Origin: Corynebacterium sp. HMSC08A12
Lineage (GTDB): Bacteria; Actinomycetota; Actinomycetes; Mycobacteriales; Mycobacteriaceae
DNA length: 64,000 nucleotides
Direction of reading: 5' to 3'
Assembly (NCBI RefSeq): GCF_001807485.1
Contig: NZ_KV789165.1
Coordinates: 45,426 to 109,425 of the forward strand
Positions 31,778-40,305 of the stretch are shown here, piece after piece. The position numbers and the translations under genes are program-made. The notes under the pieces are model-generated. The model saw only the letters and a program-made list of their open reading frames with translations. It did no database searches and was not told the origin of the DNA. Within the stretch, counting starts at the first letter, position 1. Each line of letters starts with the position of its first letter.

Positions 31778-31909
31778 ATGTTCGAGCAGATCAACAACAT
31801 CTTCACCCAGCTGACCGACTTCTTCGGCGGCTTCAAGAGCATCTTCGAGGGCCTGGGCAAGGTTGCCGGCGTTATCAACGAGTGGGTTAACGGCAAGGCT
31901 GAGAAGTAA
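31778..31909 (+). CDS. porA: PorA-type cell-wall channel protein (43 residues)
   Basis: A 43-residue acidic amphipathic peptide, MFEQINNIFTQLTDFFGGF then KSIFEGLGKVAG and NEWVNGKAEK. Length, lack of a signal peptide and position between groEL2 and ppk2 match the PorA/PorH channel formers of the mycolic-acid outer membrane of corynebacteria. In C. glutamicum two such genes lie here; in C. jeikeium and C. urealyticum one peptide alone forms the pore. Ser and Thr residues are available for the mycoloylation known in some PorA proteins. A strong AGGAG precedes the ATG, and a strong terminator follows, as expected for an abundant product. Confidence 0.88.
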   Translation: MFEQINNIFTQLTDFFGGFKSIFEGLGKVAGVINEWVNGKAEK

Positions 31910-31954: not shown

Positions 31955-32069
31955 CATGCCTTTCCTACCCCGTATGGTTCCGGCACATCTGTATAGCTGG
32001 GCCAAAACCACTAGACTGGAAAGTGCTACTAGAATTGAAAAATCTTCAGGCGAAGGAGAACCCAGGCAC

Positions 32070-32960
32070 ATGGCCGAAGAAGAATTCCACATGGTTGATC
32101 TTGCCGCTACCGAGGGCTACTTGGTGGACGACTCGGATGAAGACGATCCGGTACTGATCACTCCGGACGGCCATCGGGTTGATACCTGGCGCGACCAATA
32201 CCCCTACGACGAGCGCATGAGCCGCGACGAGTATGAGACCACCAAGCGCGCCCTGCAGATCGAGCTGCTGAAGTTCCAGAACTGGACCAAGGACACCGGC
32301 CAGAAGCACATCATTATTTTCGAGGGTCGTGATGCTGCCGGTAAGGGCGGCACCATCAAGCGCTTCAACGAGCACCTGAACCCCCGTGGTGCCCGCACCG
32401 TGGCCCTGGAGAAGCCCTCCGAGCGCGAGTCCACTTCCTGGTACTTCCAGCGCTACGTCCAGCACTTCCCGTGCGGCGGCGAGATCGTCTTTTTCGACCG
32501 CTCCTGGTACAACCGCTCCGGCGTGGAGCGCGTGATGGGCTTCTGCACCAACGATCAGCACGCAGAGTTCCTGCGTGAGGTTCCGATGCTGGAGAACATG
32601 ATCATGGGGTCGGGCATCTCCCTGACGAAGCTGTGGTTCTCCGTCACTCAGAAGGAGCAGCGCACCCGTTTCGCCATCCGCCAGGTGGACCCGGTTCGCC
32701 AGTGGAAGCTCTCCCCGATGGACCTGGCCTCCCTGGACAAGTGGGATGACTACACCCGCGCCAAGGAAGAGCAGTTCCGCTACACGGATACCAACGAGTC
32801 CCCGTGGATCACCATTAAGTCCAACGACAAGAAGCGCGCCCGCATCAACGCGATGCGCTACGTCCTGTCCAAGTTCGAGTACGCGGACAAGGACCACGAG
32901 GTCGTCGGCGAGCCGGATCCGAAGATCGTCAAGCGCGGCCGCGACCAGATCGGCGACTAA
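32070..32960 (+). CDS. ppk2: Polyphosphate kinase 2
   Basis: A 296-residue PPK2-family kinase that transfers phosphate between polyphosphate and nucleoside di-/triphosphates. Walker A GRDAAGKGGTIKRF lies near 85-98 and the lid/Walker B DRSWYNRSGVERVMGF near 145-160. The ATG at 32070 has GGAG about 12 bases upstream; the longer frame to 31956 begins inside the porA terminator. The groEL2-porA-ppk2 order is conserved in corynebacteria. Direction of catalysis (GTP/ATP synthesis or polyP formation) cannot be read from sequence. Confidence 0.93.
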   Translation: MAEEEFHMVDLAATEGYLVDDSDEDDPVLITPDGHRVDTWRDQYPYDERMSRDEYETTKRALQIELLKFQNWTKDTGQKHIIIFEGRDAAGKGGTIKRFNEHLNPRGARTVALEKPSERESTSWYFQRYVQHFPCGGEIVFFDRSWYNRSGVERVMGFCTNDQHAEFLREVPMLENMIMGSGISLTKLWFSVTQKEQRTRFAIRQVDPVRQWKLSPMDLASLDKWDDYTRAKEEQFRYTDTNESPWITIKSNDKKRARINAMRYVLSKFEYADKDHEVVGEPDPKIVKRGRDQIGD

Positions 32961-33001
32961 TAGAACCCATTCGGACTGGCCGGACCGAGCCAGTACGCGA
33001 A

Positions 33002-33045
33002 CAAGCCCCGGCTGCCCTACAAGGGCGACTGGGGCTTGAGTTTTT
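33002..33045. terminator. Terminator between convergent ppk2 and the NRPS gene
   Basis: CAAGCCCC (33002-33009) pairs with GGGGCTTG (33031-33038), with an inner GCCC/GGGC pairing, then AGTTTTT. It serves ppk2; for the opposite gene, which ends at 33051, the A-side lacks a long T-tract. Confidence 0.85.
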
Positions 33046-33050
33046 GGAGG

Positions 33051-36000
33051 CTAACTCTCCACGATCTCGATCGGGTTGCCCTGCCACTTCGTTGCGGCGG
33101 GCACGTGGTCGCCGCGCATAACTAGTGACGCCGGGCCGACCGTCGCGGCCTGTTCGATCGCTGCGGCGGGCAGAGCCACGCTGTGCGGTCCCATCGTCGC
33201 GCCGTCACCCAGGGTGACGGTATCCAGGCTCATCACACGGTCCTGGAACAGGTGCGTCTGCACCACACAACCTGGGCCCACGCTGGCGCCTCGGCCAATG
33301 CTGACCAGATCCGCCTCGGGCAGCCAGTAGGAATCCAACCAAGCGCCCCGACCGATCTTCGCGCCCAGTGCACGCAGGAACATGTTGAGGCTGCTGGTGC
33401 CCATCGTGTGCGCCAGGAACCACGGGCCGGCCACGGTCTCCACAAACTGATCCTGCAGCTCGTTGAGCCACACGAAGGCAGACCACAGCTCGTGCTCGCC
33501 CGCCTTGATGCGCTGCACGCACAGCCACTTCATCAGCACCGTTACCGCCGCTGCCACGAAACCAGCGCCGACCAGAACCAGGCCGGAGACCGCGAAGGTC
33601 TGCCAAATGCCCTGGTTCGCCAGCATCCACTGCAGCGCCAGCACCACGCCCGCCGCAATCGTGGCGGAGGTCATCGGCGCCAACAAGCGCAGGGTCTCCA
33701 CGATGCCGCGGGCCACCTTCAGGCCGAAGCCCGGGTTGTAGGTGCGGGACTCTCCACCGGCTTCCACGGCCACGCGACGCAGGCGCTCCGGCGGGGAACC
33801 CAGCCAGTTGCTGCCGGATTTCGTCTTCACCGGGGTGGAGGAAAGCACGGCCACCAGAGAGTTCTTCTTCAGCGTGCGATCCGGGCCGGCGATACCGGAG
33901 TTACCCAGGAAGGAACGCTTACCCACCTTCGTATTACCGGTGAGCATCCAGCCGCCACCGCCGAGCTCGTAGCCACCGACCATCGTGTCGTCCGCCAGGA
34001 ACGCGCCCTCGCGTACCTCGGCGAAGCGCGGCACCATCACGGCGGTGGAGATCTCCGCATCCTTGCCCACCTTGGCGCCCAGACTGCGGAACCACAGCGG
34101 GGTCAGCTGTGCCGCGTACATCGGGAACAGTTGAGTACGGGCGCTATCCATCAGGCGCTCAACCGCCCAAACGCGCCAGCCGCTGAGGCTGCGCACGGCC
34201 ACCACGCCCGGCTTCAGGCCTGCGGACAGCAGACGGACGGACAGCCACGTCAGTGCTGCGTACGTTGCAAATGCCACCAGACCACCAACTGCGGCGATGG
34301 GAAGCGCCAGCAAGGGGGCGTCAACAGGAACGAGCCACAGCACAAACGCCGCAGCGACGAACAGAGCCACCAGGGGCAGGAACGACATCGCGATGGCGCT
34401 CAGCGCGTAGAGCCAGAACCACATGGTGCGGCGCGGGGCGGCGTGCTCCGGGAAACGGTTGCGGGCCTTGCCGACCTTCACCGCAGGCGAACCTGCCCAC
34501 TGCGAACCTGCCTTGACCTTCTTGGCTCCCGTGACGGCTGAGCCGGGCTCGATGTGAGCGCGGGCGCCGATGCGGGCACCGGGGAACAGGGTGGAGCGGG
34601 CGCCGACGGAGGCGTCCTTGCCGACCTCGATTCTGCCGACATGCAGCACATCGCCCTCCAGCCAGTAGCCGGAAAGATCCACCTCCTGCTCGATGGAACA
34701 GTGCTTGCCCAGGGTCAGCAGGCCAGTGACGGGCGGCAGGGTGTGCATCTGCGCGCCCTTGCCGACCTTCGCGCCCAGCCAACGGGCATAGGTGGTGATC
34801 CACGCGGCACCGGAGACATCGCGTGCGCCGGAGGAATCCGCCACGCGCTCCGCAGCCCAAATGCGCAGGTGAACAGAGCCGCCGCGCTTATAGTCGCCTT
34901 CGCCGATGCCCGCCGTAATCAGGCGGATCAACAGCGCGGACAGCGGCAGGCGGCCCAGCGGGGTGGCGAAGACGATCACCGCGGCGATGACCACGGCCCA
35001 AGGCACGTCGACAACCCACGGCAGGTCGCCCGCCCACGAGGAACCGTGGAACAGGATCGCGTTGAACACCAGGATCCAGGTGACCCACTGCGCGCCCGCG
35101 AGGGTGAGCGCCGGAACCTGGATCAGGGCTTGCGCAAGGCGGGTGCCGATGCCCACCGGCTTGGCGGGCTTGACGTCCTTGGCCTGGGCGGCCTGGCCGG
35201 AGCCCGTGCCGCCGGTCTTTTCGCGCAGAGAGTCGATGTGCTCGGCCAGTGCACCCAGGCGGGAGTGATCGTAGAGATCACGCACGCTGACGGTGGGAAC
35301 CTCCTGGCGCACGCGGCTGATCAGCGTGGCCGCACCCAGGGAGGTGCCGCCGAGGTTAAAGAAGTCCGCATCCGGGCTGGTTACTGCCGTGCCGAGCGCG
35401 TCGGCGAACAGCCCCGCCAGCCACTGCTGGGTGGGGTTGTCGAACTCCGCGTTGCCACTGGAAGGCAGCGGCCACGGCAGAGCCTTCTTGTCCACCTTGC
35501 CGGAGGTCGTCACCGGCAGCTCGTCCAGCGCGCACAGGCGCGGAACCATGGCAGCGGGCATGGAATCGCGCAGCTGGTCTAGCGCCTGCTGCTGGTCGAA
35601 GTCCTCGACGTCTCCCTCGGTGGAGACGTAGCCCACCAGCACCTTGTCTCCGCCGCCGGTGGTCTGCACCACGACGGTGGAGCTACGTACTCCGGGGAGG
35701 GCGGACAGCGCGGCGTCTACCTCACCGAGTTCGATTCGACGCCCACCGATCTTCACCTGGTCGTCGATACGACCGACGAAGTACAGGCCATCTTCCTCGA
35801 GGCGCACATGGTCGCCGGAGCGGTAGGCGCGTTCCCAGCCGAGCTCCGGCATGGGCGCGAACTTTTCCGCATCCTTTTCCGGATCCAGATAGCGGGCCAG
35901 GCCGACGCCGCCGATGATCAGCTCGCCGGTCTCACCCCAGCCCACCGGCTGGTTGTTTTCGTTAACGACAGCCAGGTCCCAGCCGCGCAGGGGAGTGCCA

Positions 36001-36950
36001 ATGGAAACCGGGCGCACCCCGTCCATGGTGGTGCCGCAGGCCACGACGGTGGCCTCGGTCGGGCCATAGGTGTTCCACAGCTCGCGGGAATCGGTGGCCA
36101 GGCGGGTGGCCAGCTCCGGCGGGCAGGCCTCGCCGCCGAAGATCAGCAGACGCACGGCATCCAAGGCCTCATCGGGCCAGAGACCGGCCAGGGTCGGCAC
36201 AGTGGAAACTGCCGTGACGCTGCGGGAAACCAGCCAAGGCCCTAGGTCCACGCCGGAGCGCACCAGGGCGCGTGGGGCGGGTACTAGGCAGGCGCCGTGG
36301 CGCCAAGCCAGCCACATTTCCTCGCAGGAAGCATCGAAGGCGACGGACAGTCCCGCTAGAACGCGGTCGCCCGGGGCCAGTGGCTCGTCCTGCAGGAACA
36401 TCTCCGCTTCCGCGTCCACGAAGGCAGCCGCGTTGCGGTGGGTGACTGCCACGCCCTTCGGCTTGCCGGTGGAACCGGAGGTGAAAATGATCCACGCATC
36501 GGTCTCCAGGTCCGGGCCGAATGCTTTGTTGGAGGTTGCCCCGGGATCTGCCTGCAGGTTGGCATCGACTAGCTGCAGTCCGTCAGCGCCGTAGATTGCG
36601 GCCACGCCGGCCTCGCCGAAGACAAGGGAAGCTCGTTCCTCGGGGTCGTCGGCGTCAACAGGTACATAGGCAGCACCGACGGCCAGGGTGGATAAAATAG
36701 CGATGTAGAGCGAGCGATCGCCGCTGGGCATACGAATACCGATGCGGTCGCCGCGCCCGAGGCCACGGTTATGCAGCCACTCGGCGGTTTCGTTGATTTC
36801 GTCGAGCAGCTCGGAATAGGTAATAACCCCCTTGCCGTCGTCGATGGCGGGGGCTTCTGGGCACGCCGAAGCCGTCGCACGCACAATGTCGATGAGCGTG
36901 CGCGGCTCCGGTGCCTCGTGGGAACGGAGGTACCGGGAAGGGATTTGCAC
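33051..36950 (-). CDS. Single-module NRPS of the Pls/PosA (poly-amino-acid synthetase) type
   Basis: 1299 residues. Adenylation domain 1-495: FTSGSTGKPKG from 156, NTYGPTEAT 293-301, GRIDDQVKIGGRRIE 393-407, TTSGKVDK 481-488. Carrier domain about 505-575 with LGGTSLG (Ser537, pantetheine site). Then membrane helices (about 605-670, 843-910 and around 1100-1150) alternating with soluble, hexapeptide-repeat-like domains. This is the layout of epsilon-poly-lysine synthetase (Pls, about 1320 residues) and relatives. Reading the specificity pocket by hand gives D206, A207, E210, then S, I, G, T, V, V, with the A10 lysine: close to lysine-type codes as I remember them. Product unknown. A MarR gene lies 7 bases upstream. 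Confidence 0.85.
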   Translation of the reverse strand: MQIPSRYLRSHEAPEPRTLIDIVRATASACPEAPAIDDGKGVITYSELLDEINETAEWLHNRGLGRGDRIGIRMPSGDRSLYIAILSTLAVGAAYVPVDADDPEERASLVFGEAGVAAIYGADGLQLVDANLQADPGATSNKAFGPDLETDAWIIFTSGSTGKPKGVAVTHRNAAAFVDAEAEMFLQDEPLAPGDRVLAGLSVAFDASCEEMWLAWRHGACLVPAPRALVRSGVDLGPWLVSRSVTAVSTVPTLAGLWPDEALDAVRLLIFGGEACPPELATRLATDSRELWNTYGPTEATVVACGTTMDGVRPVSIGTPLRGWDLAVVNENNQPVGWGETGELIIGGVGLARYLDPEKDAEKFAPMPELGWERAYRSGDHVRLEEDGLYFVGRIDDQVKIGGRRIELGEVDAALSALPGVRSSTVVVQTTGGGDKVLVGYVSTEGDVEDFDQQQALDQLRDSMPAAMVPRLCALDELPVTTSGKVDKKALPWPLPSSGNAEFDNPTQQWLAGLFADALGTAVTSPDADFFNLGGTSLGAATLISRVRQEVPTVSVRDLYDHSRLGALAEHIDSLREKTGGTGSGQAAQAKDVKPAKPVGIGTRLAQALIQVPALTLAGAQWVTWILVFNAILFHGSSWAGDLPWVVDVPWAVVIAAVIVFATPLGRLPLSALLIRLITAGIGEGDYKRGGSVHLRIWAAERVADSSGARDVSGAAWITTYARWLGAKVGKGAQMHTLPPVTGLLTLGKHCSIEQEVDLSGYWLEGDVLHVGRIEVGKDASVGARSTLFPGARIGARAHIEPGSAVTGAKKVKAGSQWAGSPAVKVGKARNRFPEHAAPRRTMWFWLYALSAIAMSFLPLVALFVAAAFVLWLVPVDAPLLALPIAAVGGLVAFATYAALTWLSVRLLSAGLKPGVVAVRSLSGWRVWAVERLMDSARTQLFPMYAAQLTPLWFRSLGAKVGKDAEISTAVMVPRFAEVREGAFLADDTMVGGYELGGGGWMLTGNTKVGKRSFLGNSGIAGPDRTLKKNSLVAVLSSTPVKTKSGSNWLGSPPERLRRVAVEAGGESRTYNPGFGLKVARGIVETLRLLAPMTSATIAAGVVLALQWMLANQGIWQTFAVSGLVLVGAGFVAAAVTVLMKWLCVQRIKAGEHELWSAFVWLNELQDQFVETVAGPWFLAHTMGTSSLNMFLRALGAKIGRGAWLDSYWLPEADLVSIGRGASVGPGCVVQTHLFQDRVMSLDTVTLGDGATMGPHSVALPAAAIEQAATVGPASLVMRGDHVPAATKWQGNPIEIVES

Positions 36951-36957
36951 TTTTCGC

Positions 36958-37404
36958 CTAGGCCTCCTCGGTAGAGATGATGGCCTTGGCCAGCTTGCTC
37001 AAGTGCTTAAGCTGCTTGGAAGTGGATTCGTCTAGCGCCTTATCCTCTGCGGAGGCGACCAGAGGGGAGAGACTGTTGTAGGTCTTAGTGCCCTTCTTGG
37101 TCACCGAAATGATCTGGCGGCGACGATCCTTCGGATCCTTAACCCTCTTGGCGAGGGAGCGCTTTTCCAGGGAGTCGACCAGGCGAACCATGTCGGAGCG
37201 GTCCACCCCAAGAATTTCGCCTAGCGTGGCCTGGCTTGCTGCATCGCCATCGACGAGGCAGGCAAGAACCCAGAATTCGCGCAGGTTGAAGCCCTTTTCC
37301 GCGAGCGCGGTCTCTACGAAGTCGCGGGTGCGGCGGCGTAGGCGCTCAAGCTGGAATGAGGGCGAAGACAACAAGTCAGCGGGTAGCGGCGTGTTTTCGG
37401 ACAT
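36958..37404 (-). CDS. MarR-family regulator of the NRPS operon
   Basis: A 148-residue winged-helix protein: LREFWVLACLVDGDAAS, ILGVDRSDMVRLVDSLEKR and the wing AKRVKDPKDRRRQII. It ends 7 bases before the NRPS start and is transcribed with it, so it probably controls the synthetase, perhaps in response to its product. The start at 37404 follows TATATT (37411-37416, minus strand) by 6 bases, suggesting a leaderless mRNA for the operon. Only a short gap separates it from the rhodanese gene. Confidence 0.88.
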   Translation of the reverse strand: MSENTPLPADLLSSPSFQLERLRRRTRDFVETALAEKGFNLREFWVLACLVDGDAASQATLGEILGVDRSDMVRLVDSLEKRSLAKRVKDPKDRRRQIISVTKKGTKTYNSLSPLVASAEDKALDESTSKQLKHLSKLAKAIISTEEA

Positions 37405-37410
37405 GCCATA

Positions 37411-37416
37411 AATATA
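37411..37416 (-). promoter_or_regulatory. -10 box of the marR-NRPS operon
   Basis: TATATT on the minus strand, 6 bases before the ATG at 37404; consistent with a leaderless or near-leaderless transcript. Confidence 0.5.
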
Positions 37417-37436
37417 ACGCTGACTATGGGGGTTGT

Positions 37437-37748
37437 CTAATTGTGGGGTTGCCCCACGATAGGTAGTCCGGCGTCTCGCCAGCCGGCCGTGCCGTTAGCA
37501 ACGTTGATTGCGTCGATGCCATTCTGCTCCAGCCACTGGCAGGCGCGCGCGGAGCGACCACCGGAGAGGCAGATCAGGTAAATATCCTCGTTCAGGTCCA
37601 GCTCGCCGTAGCGAGCCTGCAGCTCGGAGAGGGGCAGGTTGGTCGCGCCCTCGGCGTGCCACTGGTTGTATTCGTCCACCTCACGGATGTCGATTAGCTG
37701 GGCGCCAGCAGGAACATCGGTGGGCTGTACTGTTTCGAATTCACTCAT
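37437..37748 (-). CDS. Rhodanese-like single-domain protein
   Basis: 103 residues forming one rhodanese domain: AQLIDIREVDEYNQWHAEGA at the start and the active-site loop CLSGGRSAR near 63-71 with the catalytic Cys. It could transfer sulfane sulfur to a thiol acceptor; no partner is evident nearby. The start at ATG 37746-37748 is supported by TACAAT (37757-37762, minus strand) 8 bases upstream, a leaderless arrangement; the frame extends nine codons further into this promoter. Confidence 0.88.
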   Translation of the reverse strand: MSEFETVQPTDVPAGAQLIDIREVDEYNQWHAEGATNLPLSELQARYGELDLNEDIYLICLSGGRSARACQWLEQNGIDAINVANGTAGWRDAGLPIVGQPHN

Positions 37749-37756
37749 GGCGCCCC

Positions 37757-37762
37757 ATTGTA
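37757..37762 (-). promoter_or_regulatory. -10 box of the rhodanese gene (leaderless)
   Basis: TACAAT on the minus strand, 8 bases before the start codon at 37748. Confidence 0.5.
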
Positions 37763-37872
37763 GGCAAGGTGGCAAAGTTGGGCAGCCAGCGAGGTGGAGT
37801 TGAATAGCGTGGAGTTAAATAGAAGGGACACCCCGGTGGGGACCTGCCGGGCCGTTTACGCAGGAGGTCGAA

Positions 37873-40305
37873 GTGGCGCACGCCAGCGAGCAAGCTAGCG
37901 CCGAAGTGCAGGCTGACCCTTCGCGGGGACTCACGGCCGCCGAGGTAGAGGAGCGCAAGCAACGCGGCGAGGTGAATGCGCAGAGCCGCGGAACCGGCCG
38001 AAGCGTGGCACAGATTCTGCGCGCCAACATCTTCACCCGCGTCAATGCCATCCTCGGCGTTCTGTGCGCGATCGTCCTGTCCACCGGTTCGGTCATCAAC
38101 GCCGCCTTCGGCCTGCTCATCATCGCTAATTCCGCGGTGGGTGTGATCCAGGAGCTGCGTGCGAAGAAGACCCTCGACAAACTGCGCATCGTCGGCGAAT
38201 CGGAACCCACCGTCATCCGCGATGGCGAGGAAAAAACCATCCCGCAGCACGAGGTCGTCCTCGGGGACATCATCAAGCTGCGCAGCGGGGACGAGGTCGT
38301 GGTGGACGGCACGGTGGTGGCCGGCTCGCTGCGCGTCGACGAATCCCAGCTGACCGGCGAGGCCGATGCTGTGAGCAAGGGCGAGGGTGACGAGATCCTC
38401 TCGGGATCCTTCGTCAACGAAGGCTCCGCCGTTTTCCGCGCAGATAAGGTCGGCGATGAGGCCTATGCCGCACGCCTGGCCTCCCAGGCCAGCGAGTTTT
38501 CGCTGACCGACTCCGTGCTTATGAACGGCATCAACAGCATCCTCAAGGTAATCACCTGGCTGCTTATCCCGACCGGCATCCTCACGATCTGGACCCAGCT
38601 GGTCCGCTCCGATACGGGTCTGCGCGAATCCATCCTTTCCATGGCTGCGGCGATCGTCCCGATGGTGCCGGAGGGGCTGGTTCTTATGACCTCCATCGCC
38701 TTCGCTGCGGGCGTGATCCGCCTTGGCAAGTACAAAGCCCTGGTCAACGAGCTCGTCGCCATCGAAGGGCTCGCGCGCGTCGATACGGTATGCACCGACA
38801 AGACCGGCACCCTCACCACCAATGAGATGGAGCTGGATTCCATCGTCGCCGCCGACGGAAGCCCTGCTGACGGGAGCGAAGAGGACGAAACCTGGGCGCG
38901 CAACCTCGCCTCCATGCTGAACGCCCAGGATGATCTGAACGACACCGCCCGCTCTATCGTGGCCGGGCTACGCGAGCGCGGCGTGGAACCCGAACAGTGG
39001 CAGGGCCACGAGATTCCTTTTAACTCGCGCTACAAGTTCTCTGGGTTCGCCTGCTCTGACGCCACCGCCTGGATCATGGGCGCCCCCGACGTGCTTTTGC
39101 GCGAAGGTGGTCGTGCTGCAGAAACAGCCAAGGAGCTGGGCGATCAGGGTTTGCGCATCCTGGTGTTCGGCAAGCTCGAAGGCGCCGATGGGGAGGCCTG
39201 GGCCAACACGAACGACCTCAGCATGGATTCCGCCCCGCAACTGAATGAACCGGTGCTCGTGGTGCTTCGCCAGCAACTGCGCTCCGACGCCCGCGAAACG
39301 CTCGCGTACTTCGACGAGCAGAACGTGGACATCAAGGTGATCTCCGGCGACAACTCGGATTCCGTGGCGGCGGTCGCGCGCAAGGCAACCGACCGGGATC
39401 TCGTGGCGGTGGATGCCCGCACGCTGAACGGCCTGGACGACGAAGCCTTCGATGCGGAGATCAAACGCGGAAATGTCTTTGGGCGGGTCAGCCCGGAGCA
39501 AAAGCAGCAGATGGTGGAATCTTTGCACCGTCAGAACCGCACGGTGGCCATGACCGGCGACGGCGTCAACGACGTGTTGGCGCTGAAAAAGGCAGACATT
39601 GGCGTGGCCATGGGCTCGGGCGCACCCGCAACGCGCAGCGTGGCGCAGCTAGTACTGCTGACGAACAAGTTCTCCGCACTGCCGCGCGTGGTGGCCGAGG
39701 GGCGCCGGGTGATCGGCAACATCGAGCGCGTGGCGCACCTATTCCTTACGAAGACGGTGTACTCGGTGGTGCTGGCGCTGGTGGTGGCGGTACTGGGAAT
39801 CTCTTTCCCATTCCAGCCGATTCACGTGACTATCACCGGCTGGTTCACCATCGGCATCCCTGCGTTCATTCTTTCGCTGGCCCCGAACACGGAACGTCCG
39901 CGGGACGGATTCGTCAGGCGCGTGCTGTCTTTGGCGATTCCCTCCGGTGTGCTCATCGGCGGCATCTGCGTGACGATGTGGATCATCATCTACCCCGGAG
40001 CGGAGGTGCCGGAAATTCAGCGGCAACAGGCCGGTACTGCGGTGCTGCTGGCGCTGATCGTCATGGGGTTGTGGGTGCTGGGGATTGTGGCGCGGCCGCT
40101 GAATTGGTGGAAGGTGCTTCTGCTGGCCGGCTGTGTGGGCGGCTACCTGGTGATCTTCCTGGTGCCGCCGCTACGTGAGTTGTTGATTCTGCACACGGGC
40201 AACCTGAAGCTGATGCTTACGGGGTTGGCCGTGGGTGCGGGCGGGGCGGTGCTCATTGAGGTTGTGCACCAGATCGCCGCCCGCCGGCAAGCGGCTGTGA
40301 GTTAG
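37873..40305 (+). CDS. P-type cation-transporting ATPase (CtpE-like)
   Basis: 810 residues with the P-type ATPase parts in order: actuator domain with [10 protein letters not shown] near 158-167, phosphorylation site [13 protein letters not shown] near 305-317, hinge [18 protein letters not shown] near 560, and paired membrane helices before, between and after, about ten in total. The compact layout without metal-binding CxxC and without an extra N-terminal domain resembles mycobacterial CtpE, linked to calcium uptake; ion specificity is inference. GTG start at 37873 with AGGAGG 6-11 bases upstream. It is convergent with ppa, overlapping it by 4 bases at the stop codons. Confidence 0.9.

What the first reader, a model, noticed from the sequence alone, without database searches (positions are those of the whole stretch)
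33051..37404. Pls/PosA-type synthetase with lysine-like specificity residues, under a MarR regulator
One adenylation domain, one carrier domain and then membrane helices alternating with soluble domains is the layout of epsilon-poly-lysine synthetase, which builds isopeptide homopolymers without ordinary condensation or thioesterase domains. Length (1299) is close to that enzyme. Pocket residues read by hand, D-A-E-S-I-G-T-V-V-K, resemble lysine codes as I recall them. A corynebacterial cationic poly-amino acid or cell-surface-linked amino acid would be a new product. The cotranscribed MarR gene suggests inducible control.
Basis: partly seen in the sequence, partly recalled or inferred. Interest (0 to 1): 0.7.

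Follow-up and report, generated by a model that had tools for sequence, protein, structure and literature searches.

The report
Corynebacterial epsilon-poly-lysine synthetase beside MarR gene
The gene is a real membrane enzyme that most likely strings lysines into the antimicrobial polymer epsilon-poly-lysine, a kind of enzyme already reported from this bacterial genus, so the find is sound but mostly not new.

Summary
Window 33051-36950(-) is an intact 1299-aa Pls/PosA-type synthetase: adenylation domain, carrier domain with Ser537, then three repeats of a helix hairpin plus a left-handed beta-helix. Its ten pocket residues, D-A-E-S-I-G-T-V-V-K, are identical to those of solved S. albulus Pls (7wew; 63% identity). 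The likely product is epsilon-poly-L-lysine. That is not new for the genus: a C. variabile Pls was shown in 2021 to make it (PMC8117764), and later surveys report such clusters in many corynebacteria.

Two details I did not find in print. First, the window's enzyme belongs to a Corynebacterium clade that mostly sits in a conserved rhodanese-marR-pls-ppk2-groEL2 block; the tested C. variabile enzyme lies outside that clade, at another locus. Second, a palindrome is conserved upstream of marR and abuts the putative marR-pls promoter in the window, a likely self-regulatory operator. MarR is not a dedicated pls partner: 34 of 49 genomes without a Pls over the cut-off still have a MarR match. Ordinary member of a known family, with a testable regulatory lead.

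The parts
33051..36950 (-). pls: epsilon-poly-L-lysine synthetase type NRPS-like enzyme, 1299 aa
35460..36902 (-). adenylation domain (residues 17-497), pocket D-A-E-S-I-G-T-V-V-K
   Evidence: 63% identity (302 of 479 aligned residues) to 7wew, all ten pocket residues identical
35235..35426 (-). peptidyl carrier domain (residues 509-572), phosphopantetheine serine Ser537
   Evidence: PF00550 51.1 bits, cut-off 20.8; Ser in 158 of 158 aligned rows, window included
34449..35183 (-). C-terminal unit 1: helix hairpin plus left-handed beta-helix (residues 590-834)
   Evidence: AF2 model, repeat test, hexapeptide acyltransferase matches
33750..34448 (-). C-terminal unit 2 (residues 835-1067)
33054..33749 (-). 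C-terminal unit 3 (residues 1068-1299), holds invariant His1233
   Evidence: His in 158 of 158 aligned rows
36958..37404 (-). marR-family regulator, 148 aa, first gene of the inferred marR-pls transcript
   Evidence: PF12802 43.7 bits, cut-off 27; synteny
37411..37439 (-). sigma-70-like promoter TAGACA-17-TATATT directly before marR (putative)
   Evidence: the one promoter-like match in 32900-37950; shuffles give 0.6 on average (sd 0.8), so by number it is no more than chance and only its place speaks for it
37440..37460 (.). candidate MarR operator, 9-3-9 inverted repeat abutting the -35 hexamer
   Evidence: genus-wide palindromic footprint; the only zero-mismatch site in the genome
37437..37775 (-). 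rhodanese-domain gene upstream, same strand (a likelier ATG start lies within the ORF)
   Evidence: family named by reading, not scanned
31956..32960 (+). polyphosphate kinase 2 type gene, convergent downstream neighbour (context, not part of the mechanism)
   Evidence: labelled by reading and from the published groEL2-ppk2 order, not scanned

Best explanation
The gene encodes an epsilon-poly-L-lysine synthetase. The adenylation domain activates L-lysine with ATP and loads it on the phosphopantetheine arm of Ser537. The C-terminal part, three tandem helix-hairpin plus hexapeptide-acyltransferase-like beta-helix units anchored in the membrane, then moves the lysyl group from the carrier arm to the epsilon-amine of a growing chain, without ordinary condensation or thioesterase domains, and the chain leaves the cell. 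The beta-helix units would work as hexapeptide acyltransferases do with CoA, with the carrier arm in place of CoA. Transcription most likely starts directly before marR; MarR would bind the palindrome that abuts the -35 hexamer and repress marR-pls until an unknown ligand releases it. Shown here: domains, pocket identity, fold class of the model, synteny and sequence footprint. Inferred: substrate, product, membrane insertion, catalytic residue (His1233 is only a candidate), export and MarR action.
For: TIGR02353 732.8 bits; pocket identical to 7wew and the same in 154 of 157 aligned relatives, that is 150 of 153 distinct ones, since four named loci are the same genes as four unnamed ones; Ala at pocket position 2, which the PosA study links to lysine rather than ornithine (PMC10522769, passages); AF2 model and acyltransferase fold matches; three related units by profile comparison, probabilities 97.7-99.4; one phosphopantetheinyl transferase family match in the genome, subtype not determined; C. 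variabile Pls, 54% identical (681 of 1265), makes epsilon-poly-L-lysine in S. coelicolor (PMC8117764); palindromic motif upstream of marR with log-likelihood 496 against 70, 79 and 77 in three shuffled controls, which had 8 starts each against 25; held-out hits in 49 of 63 pls-bearing loci and 12 of 20 loci chosen as lacking a resident pls.
Against: No product or activity measured for this clade. C. variabile itself made no detectable polymer in culture, and the same gene expressed in C. glutamicum gave none (PMC8117764). The tested enzyme is outside the resident clade. MarR and the footprint persist in genomes lacking a resident pls, and 14 of 63 and 8 of 20 held-out loci show no significant site. 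The promoter match is one against 0.6 expected. In the window the palindrome overlaps the end of the rhodanese gene, so coding constraint may add to its conservation among near relatives.
Confidence: 0.82

Rival explanations
1. A cationic homopolymer synthetase of the same family that uses another basic amino acid (ornithine, diaminobutyrate, beta-lysine).
For: The family makes several polymers (PMC10522769, passages and one section); code prediction is not an assay.
Against: All ten pocket residues equal S. albulus Pls; the PosA code given in the paper is DMEHNGTVSK and its position 2 is tied to side-chain length.
Confidence: 0.08
2. A lysine-activating enzyme whose product stays in the envelope (short oligomer or lysine attached to a wall or membrane component) rather than a secreted polymer.
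For: A clade-wide, largely syntenic gene under purifying selection, near a porin-type gene; C. variabile cultures gave no free polymer.
Against: A 54% identical enzyme gives 26-35-mers when expressed in S. coelicolor; nothing here shows a second acceptor.
Confidence: 0.08
3. The MarR linkage is only inherited gene order: MarR regulates itself or genes elsewhere and pls is expressed independently, for example from a promoter inside marR.
For: MarR match kept in 34 of 49 genomes without a Pls over the cut-off; in 20 of 20 loci chosen as lacking a resident pls, marR remains with no pls piece beside it; C. variabile keeps MarR without its pls beside it (L207).
Against: 7 bp marR-pls gap in the window, and a gap of at most 50 bp or an overlap in 60 of 78 genus loci; the one promoter-like match in the stretch is before marR, though one is near chance level; MarR has no match in 15 of 49 pls-lacking but only 2 of 152 pls-bearing genomes.
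Confidence: 0.3

Closest known systems
Epsilon-poly-L-lysine synthetase Pls of Streptomyces albulus (adenylation domain PDB 7wew)
   Same: identical ten-residue pocket, 63% identity over the adenylation domain, same published domain order
   Different: here preceded by marR with convergent ppk2 downstream; no adjacent peptidase gene of the pldII kind. The full S. albulus protein was not in hand.
Pls of Corynebacterium variabile (PMC8117764; L186 here, found by the published primer)
   Same: 54% identity, same pocket code, same genus
   Different: outside the resident clade, at another locus, followed by a peptidase gene that reads as M1 type, no MarR linkage
Delta-poly-L-ornithine synthetase PosA of Acinetobacter baumannii (PMC10522769)
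   Same: same family and architecture; Asp and Glu at pocket positions 1 and 3
   Different: pocket DMEHNGTVSK, ornithine substrate (passages)
Hexapeptide acyltransferases (serine acetyltransferase, chloramphenicol, streptogramin and galactoside acetyltransferases)
   Same: left-handed beta-helix fold of the soluble C-terminal domains; VIA-align Z 12.9-15.1 over 96-147 residues in the 50 rows shown
   Different: three in tandem with helix hairpins; partner is a carrier-bound aminoacyl group rather than acyl-CoA (inferred)

Membership tests
Pls/PosA family (TIGR02353, cationic homo-polyamino acid synthetases) | terminal domain over the curated cut-off | tested here: met
   732.8 bits against 423.1, model positions 2-695 of 695
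Pls/PosA family (TIGR02353, cationic homo-polyamino acid synthetases) | one adenylation and one carrier domain, no condensation or thioesterase domain | tested here: met
   Pfam scan, four families only at E<=0.01; carrier Ser537
Pls/PosA family (TIGR02353, cationic homo-polyamino acid synthetases) | three tandem soluble domains related to acetyltransferases, set between six helices | tested here: met
   AF2 model pLDDT 91.4 with three helix pairs and three beta-helices; fold matches, mostly over unit 1, the best row over unit 3; unit repeat test
Pls/PosA family (TIGR02353, cationic homo-polyamino acid synthetases) | the six helices cross the membrane | tested here: inconclusive
   hydropathy peaks over five of the six model helices, none over the first; insertion not tested
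Epsilon-poly-L-lysine synthetase (Pls proper) | pocket code of confirmed Pls | tested here: met
   identical to 7wew, 10 of 10
Epsilon-poly-L-lysine synthetase (Pls proper) | groups with confirmed Pls apart from the Dab, Dap and Orn enzymes in a tree | tested here: inconclusive
   tree has C. variabile Pls but no Dab, Dap, Orn or Streptomyces full-length enzyme
Epsilon-poly-L-lysine synthetase (Pls proper) | activates L-lysine | not testable with these tools
   needs ATP-PPi exchange
Epsilon-poly-L-lysine synthetase (Pls proper) | makes epsilon-linked lysine polymer | not testable with these tools
   needs expression and mass spectrometry
pls-pldII gene context of Streptomyces and C. variabile (a context feature, not part of the enzyme's definition) | peptidase gene in operon with pls | tested here: not met
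   pls is followed by convergent ppk2; the nearest relative of the C. variabile peptidase is on contig C12, 42% identity; an ORF that reads as an M20-type peptidase lies 3.4 kb downstream, beyond ppk2 and groEL2
MarR-autoregulated operon | conserved palindrome just upstream of marR | tested here: met
   EM motif, palindrome correlation 0.848, reached by 1 of 2000 column permutations; held-out sites in 49 of 63 and 12 of 20 loci
MarR-autoregulated operon | MarR binds it and changes pls transcription | not testable with these tools
   needs DNA binding and transcript assays

The most novel reading that the evidence does not exclude
In Corynebacterium a resident, vertically kept Pls, distinct from the one tested enzyme of the genus, is switched by a self-regulating MarR at a palindromic operator and makes a lysine polycation that serves the cell envelope next to the porin and polyphosphate kinase locus, rather than a secreted antibiotic. 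The MarR ligand would then be the missing trigger for these silent genes.
Probability: 0.15. Interest if true: 0.5.

Novelty: new member of a known kind. Interest (0 to 1): 0.22.

Why it matters
Corynebacteria of skin and cheese carry poly-lysine synthetases, but the one study I read that looked for the product in Corynebacterium hosts saw none (PMC8117764). If the marR-pls operator is real, it offers a direct handle on that silence: remove marR in a laboratory species with this gene order and look for polymer. It also cautions that the tested C. variabile enzyme is not the resident one of the genus.

Tried and rejected
Rejected: a new product for the genus (PMC8117764 precedes it). Rejected: MarR as dedicated pls partner, because 34 of 49 genomes without a Pls over the cut-off still have a MarR match at E<=1e-10; the split was made by hand from the two tables, and weaker MarR matches near 40% identity may be other regulators. 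Not supported: a wider regulon for the window-type palindrome; up to 3 mismatches gave 4 places in the genome against 6 per strand for the reversed control pattern, one of the 4 being the marR site with 0 mismatches.

Led nowhere: search of the 120 loci then held for the published primer (0 of 120); a simple inverted-repeat score on the upstream regions separated weakly from shuffles (mean 5.69 against 4.97); inverted repeats in two relatives, where my coordinates were guesses and need not cover the same site. Paper searches for poly-lysine with MarR, operator or NAPAA in Corynebacterium listed nothing on this operon as far as titles and abstract starts show; one search held 100 papers and listed 20, held 138 and listed 12. 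The word MarR does not occur in the main texts of PMC8117764, PMC12188740 and PMC12542688. A search joining poly-lysine synthetase, Corynebacterium and adenylation domain gave 0 papers.

Limits: genus counts are for 201 genomes drawn evenly from the genus; one search used 242. Regions were fetched for 79 further Pls places of 78 genomes and 20 MarR places, picked by me along the score list or for lacking a resident pls, not at random; 2 of 160 loci gave no Pls ORF over 1000 aa and were dropped (L109, L151). Four named loci are the same genes as four unnamed ones. The tree used 66 of these loci plus the window, thinned at 80% identity with eight forced in, which lack MarR beside pls. Some of the 152 Pls-bearing genomes may hold only another Pls lineage. 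Of the 20 MarR loci, L207 (C. variabile) and L208 come from genomes with a Pls over the cut-off elsewhere. Sequences in the motif test are related and the shuffles keep base composition only, so significance is overstated. VIA-align rows mostly cover model residues 100-247. Gene labels rhodanese, ppa, ppk2, groEL2, M1, M20 and P-type ATPase are from reading or from papers, not from a family scan.

Full report
What is there. The window carries, on the minus strand, a 1299-codon ORF at 33051-36950 and a 148-codon ORF at 36958-37404, 7 bp apart. The larger protein scores 732.8 bits to TIGR02353, the terminal domain of Pls/PosA synthetases, cut-off 423.1, over residues 606-1294, and 336.8 bits to the amino acid adenylation model, cut-off 317.4. 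Pfam finds adenylation, carrier and a hexapeptide repeat only. The smaller protein is a MarR-family regulator (PF12802 43.7 bits, cut-off 27). The synthetase is the only TIGR02353 match over the cut-off in this 2.2 Mb, 30-contig genome.

Substrate pocket. The best solved relative is the adenylation domain of S. albulus epsilon-poly-L-lysine synthetase, 7wew (631.8 bits). In an alignment of the window protein with 7wew and 157 relatives, the ten pocket residues are D-A-E-S-I-G-T-V-V-K in the window and in 7wew, in 79 of 79 named-genome relatives and 75 of 78 genus loci; the other 3 read D-A-E-S-I-G-T-V-I-K. Four of the named loci duplicate unnamed ones, leaving 150 of 153 distinct sequences with the identical code. 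Identity to 7wew is 302 of 479. Passages of the PosA paper (PMC10522769; section 10) give DMEHNGTVSK for the ornithine enzyme and tie alanine at position 2 to lysine.

C-terminal part. AlphaFold2 on residues 590-1299 with 49 relatives gives pLDDT 91.4 and pTM 0.91: three long-helix hairpins, each followed by a left-handed beta-helix. Profile comparison of the three units gives probabilities of 97.7-99.4. Foldseek and VIA-align match hexapeptide acyltransferases, mostly over the first unit; the best VIA row (Z 15.1, 116 residues, rmsd 3.3) is over the third. This agrees with the three acetyltransferase-related domains described for Pls (PMC8117764). His694 and His1233 are invariant in 158 of 158 aligned rows and His736 in 155; that His1233 in unit 3 is catalytic is my inference. 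Hydropathy peaks cover five of the six hairpin helices, so membrane insertion of the first rests on the family description.

It is known in this genus. PMC8117764 (I read parts 1 and 2 of 4, and searched passages) reports that the C. variabile pls makes epsilon-poly-L-lysine in S. coelicolor, that 10 of 12 Corynebacterium isolates of its cheese and skin collections have pls, and that their pockets equal or resemble confirmed Pls; C. variabile itself made none in culture. PMC12542688 finds a NAPAA cluster in the majority of its isolates, PMC12188740 lists 102 such clusters in 161 genomes with two species lacking them, and PMC11078359 finds them in all its C. glutamicum strains (passages). In my sample 152 of 201 genus genomes have a match over the cut-off.

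Two kinds of locus. The published C. variabile primer matches 1 of 242 genus genomes, G160, at the start of its pls. That enzyme (L186) is 54% identical to the window's, is followed by a peptidase gene that reads as M1 type, and falls outside the Corynebacterium clade of the window, with one close relative (L194), among Microbacteriaceae, Kocuria and Kibdelosporangium rows (quick tree of 67 rows, SH-aLRT only, some forks open). Of the 38 rows of the window's clade (support 99), 35 including the window have MarR beside pls. Over the fetched genus loci, MarR lies within 700 bp on the same strand in 71 of 78 and within 50 bp or overlapping in 60; convergent ppk2 lies within 6 kb in 63, a rhodanese-type gene in 70 and groEL in 50. 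In 20 MarR loci chosen from genomes lacking a resident pls, no pls piece was found at E<=1e-6, and ppk2 is on the same stretch in 18; in L204 and L207 about 20 bp separate the matched ends of marR and ppk2. A third, divergent Pls lineage (L199-L201) has the V-I-K code ending.

Regulation. A MarR match at E<=1e-10 exists in 150 of 152 genomes with a Pls over the cut-off and 34 of 49 without (tallied by hand). So marR and pls are associated, but MarR is kept without pls too. Before marR the window has one promoter-like match in 32900-37950, TAGACA-17-TATATT; shuffles give 0.6, so only its place supports it. A 9-3-9 inverted repeat at 37440-37460 abuts it. Motif search on 83 de-duplicated upstream regions found a 24-bp motif that came out palindromic though symmetry was not asked for (log-likelihood 496 with 25 starts, against 70, 79 and 77 for shuffled sets with 8 starts). 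Held-out tests: 49 of 63 pls-bearing loci and 12 of 20 loci chosen as lacking a resident pls have a site better than about 95% of their own shuffles; palindrome correlation 0.848, reached by 1 of 2000 column permutations. In the genome the window-type palindrome occurs once without mismatch, at marR, and looser matches do not exceed the control. This supports a local, self-regulating MarR whose promoter also serves pls; binding and ligand are unknown.

Judgement. The finding is real and its main reading right, but the product is not new. What it adds is the separation of a resident Corynebacterium Pls from the tested enzyme and a footprint for its regulator. The purifying selection (dN/dS 0.04-0.06 to three near relatives) says that the protein matters to the cell; what the polymer does in corynebacteria remains open.

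Noticed in passing
window 31778-31909 (+): A 43-codon ORF between groEL2 and ppk2 with an AGGAG-type site, followed by the stem-loop CCCCGGCTTCGGCCGGGG that PMC3792995 quotes downstream of the C. jeikeium 40-aa porin gene; likely a PorA-type porin and a hint that the window is from the C. jeikeium group (passages; sequence).
   Followed up: partly
L199, L200, L201: A third, divergent Pls lineage in three of the sampled corynebacteria, 44-46% identical to the window, pocket ending V-I-K, no MarR linkage.
   Followed up: partly
L202-L221: MarR loci chosen from genomes without a resident pls: neighbours are kept with pls missing, in places only about 20 bp between the matched ends of marR and ppk2, including C. 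variabile (L207).
   Followed up: yes
window 37873-40305 (+): An 810-aa ORF that reads as a P-type cation ATPase, divergent from the rhodanese gene; among the fetched genus loci a close match stands here only in L168, L170, L171 and L173, the near relatives. Label from reading only.
   Followed up: no
L069, L070, L078, L083, L092, L106, L107, L110: A MarR-family gene also lies just before pls in 8 of the named loci outside Corynebacterium (six Nocardia, one Antrihabitans, one Speluncibacter), at 31-40% identity, so the pairing may be older than the genus or have arisen more than once.
   Followed up: no
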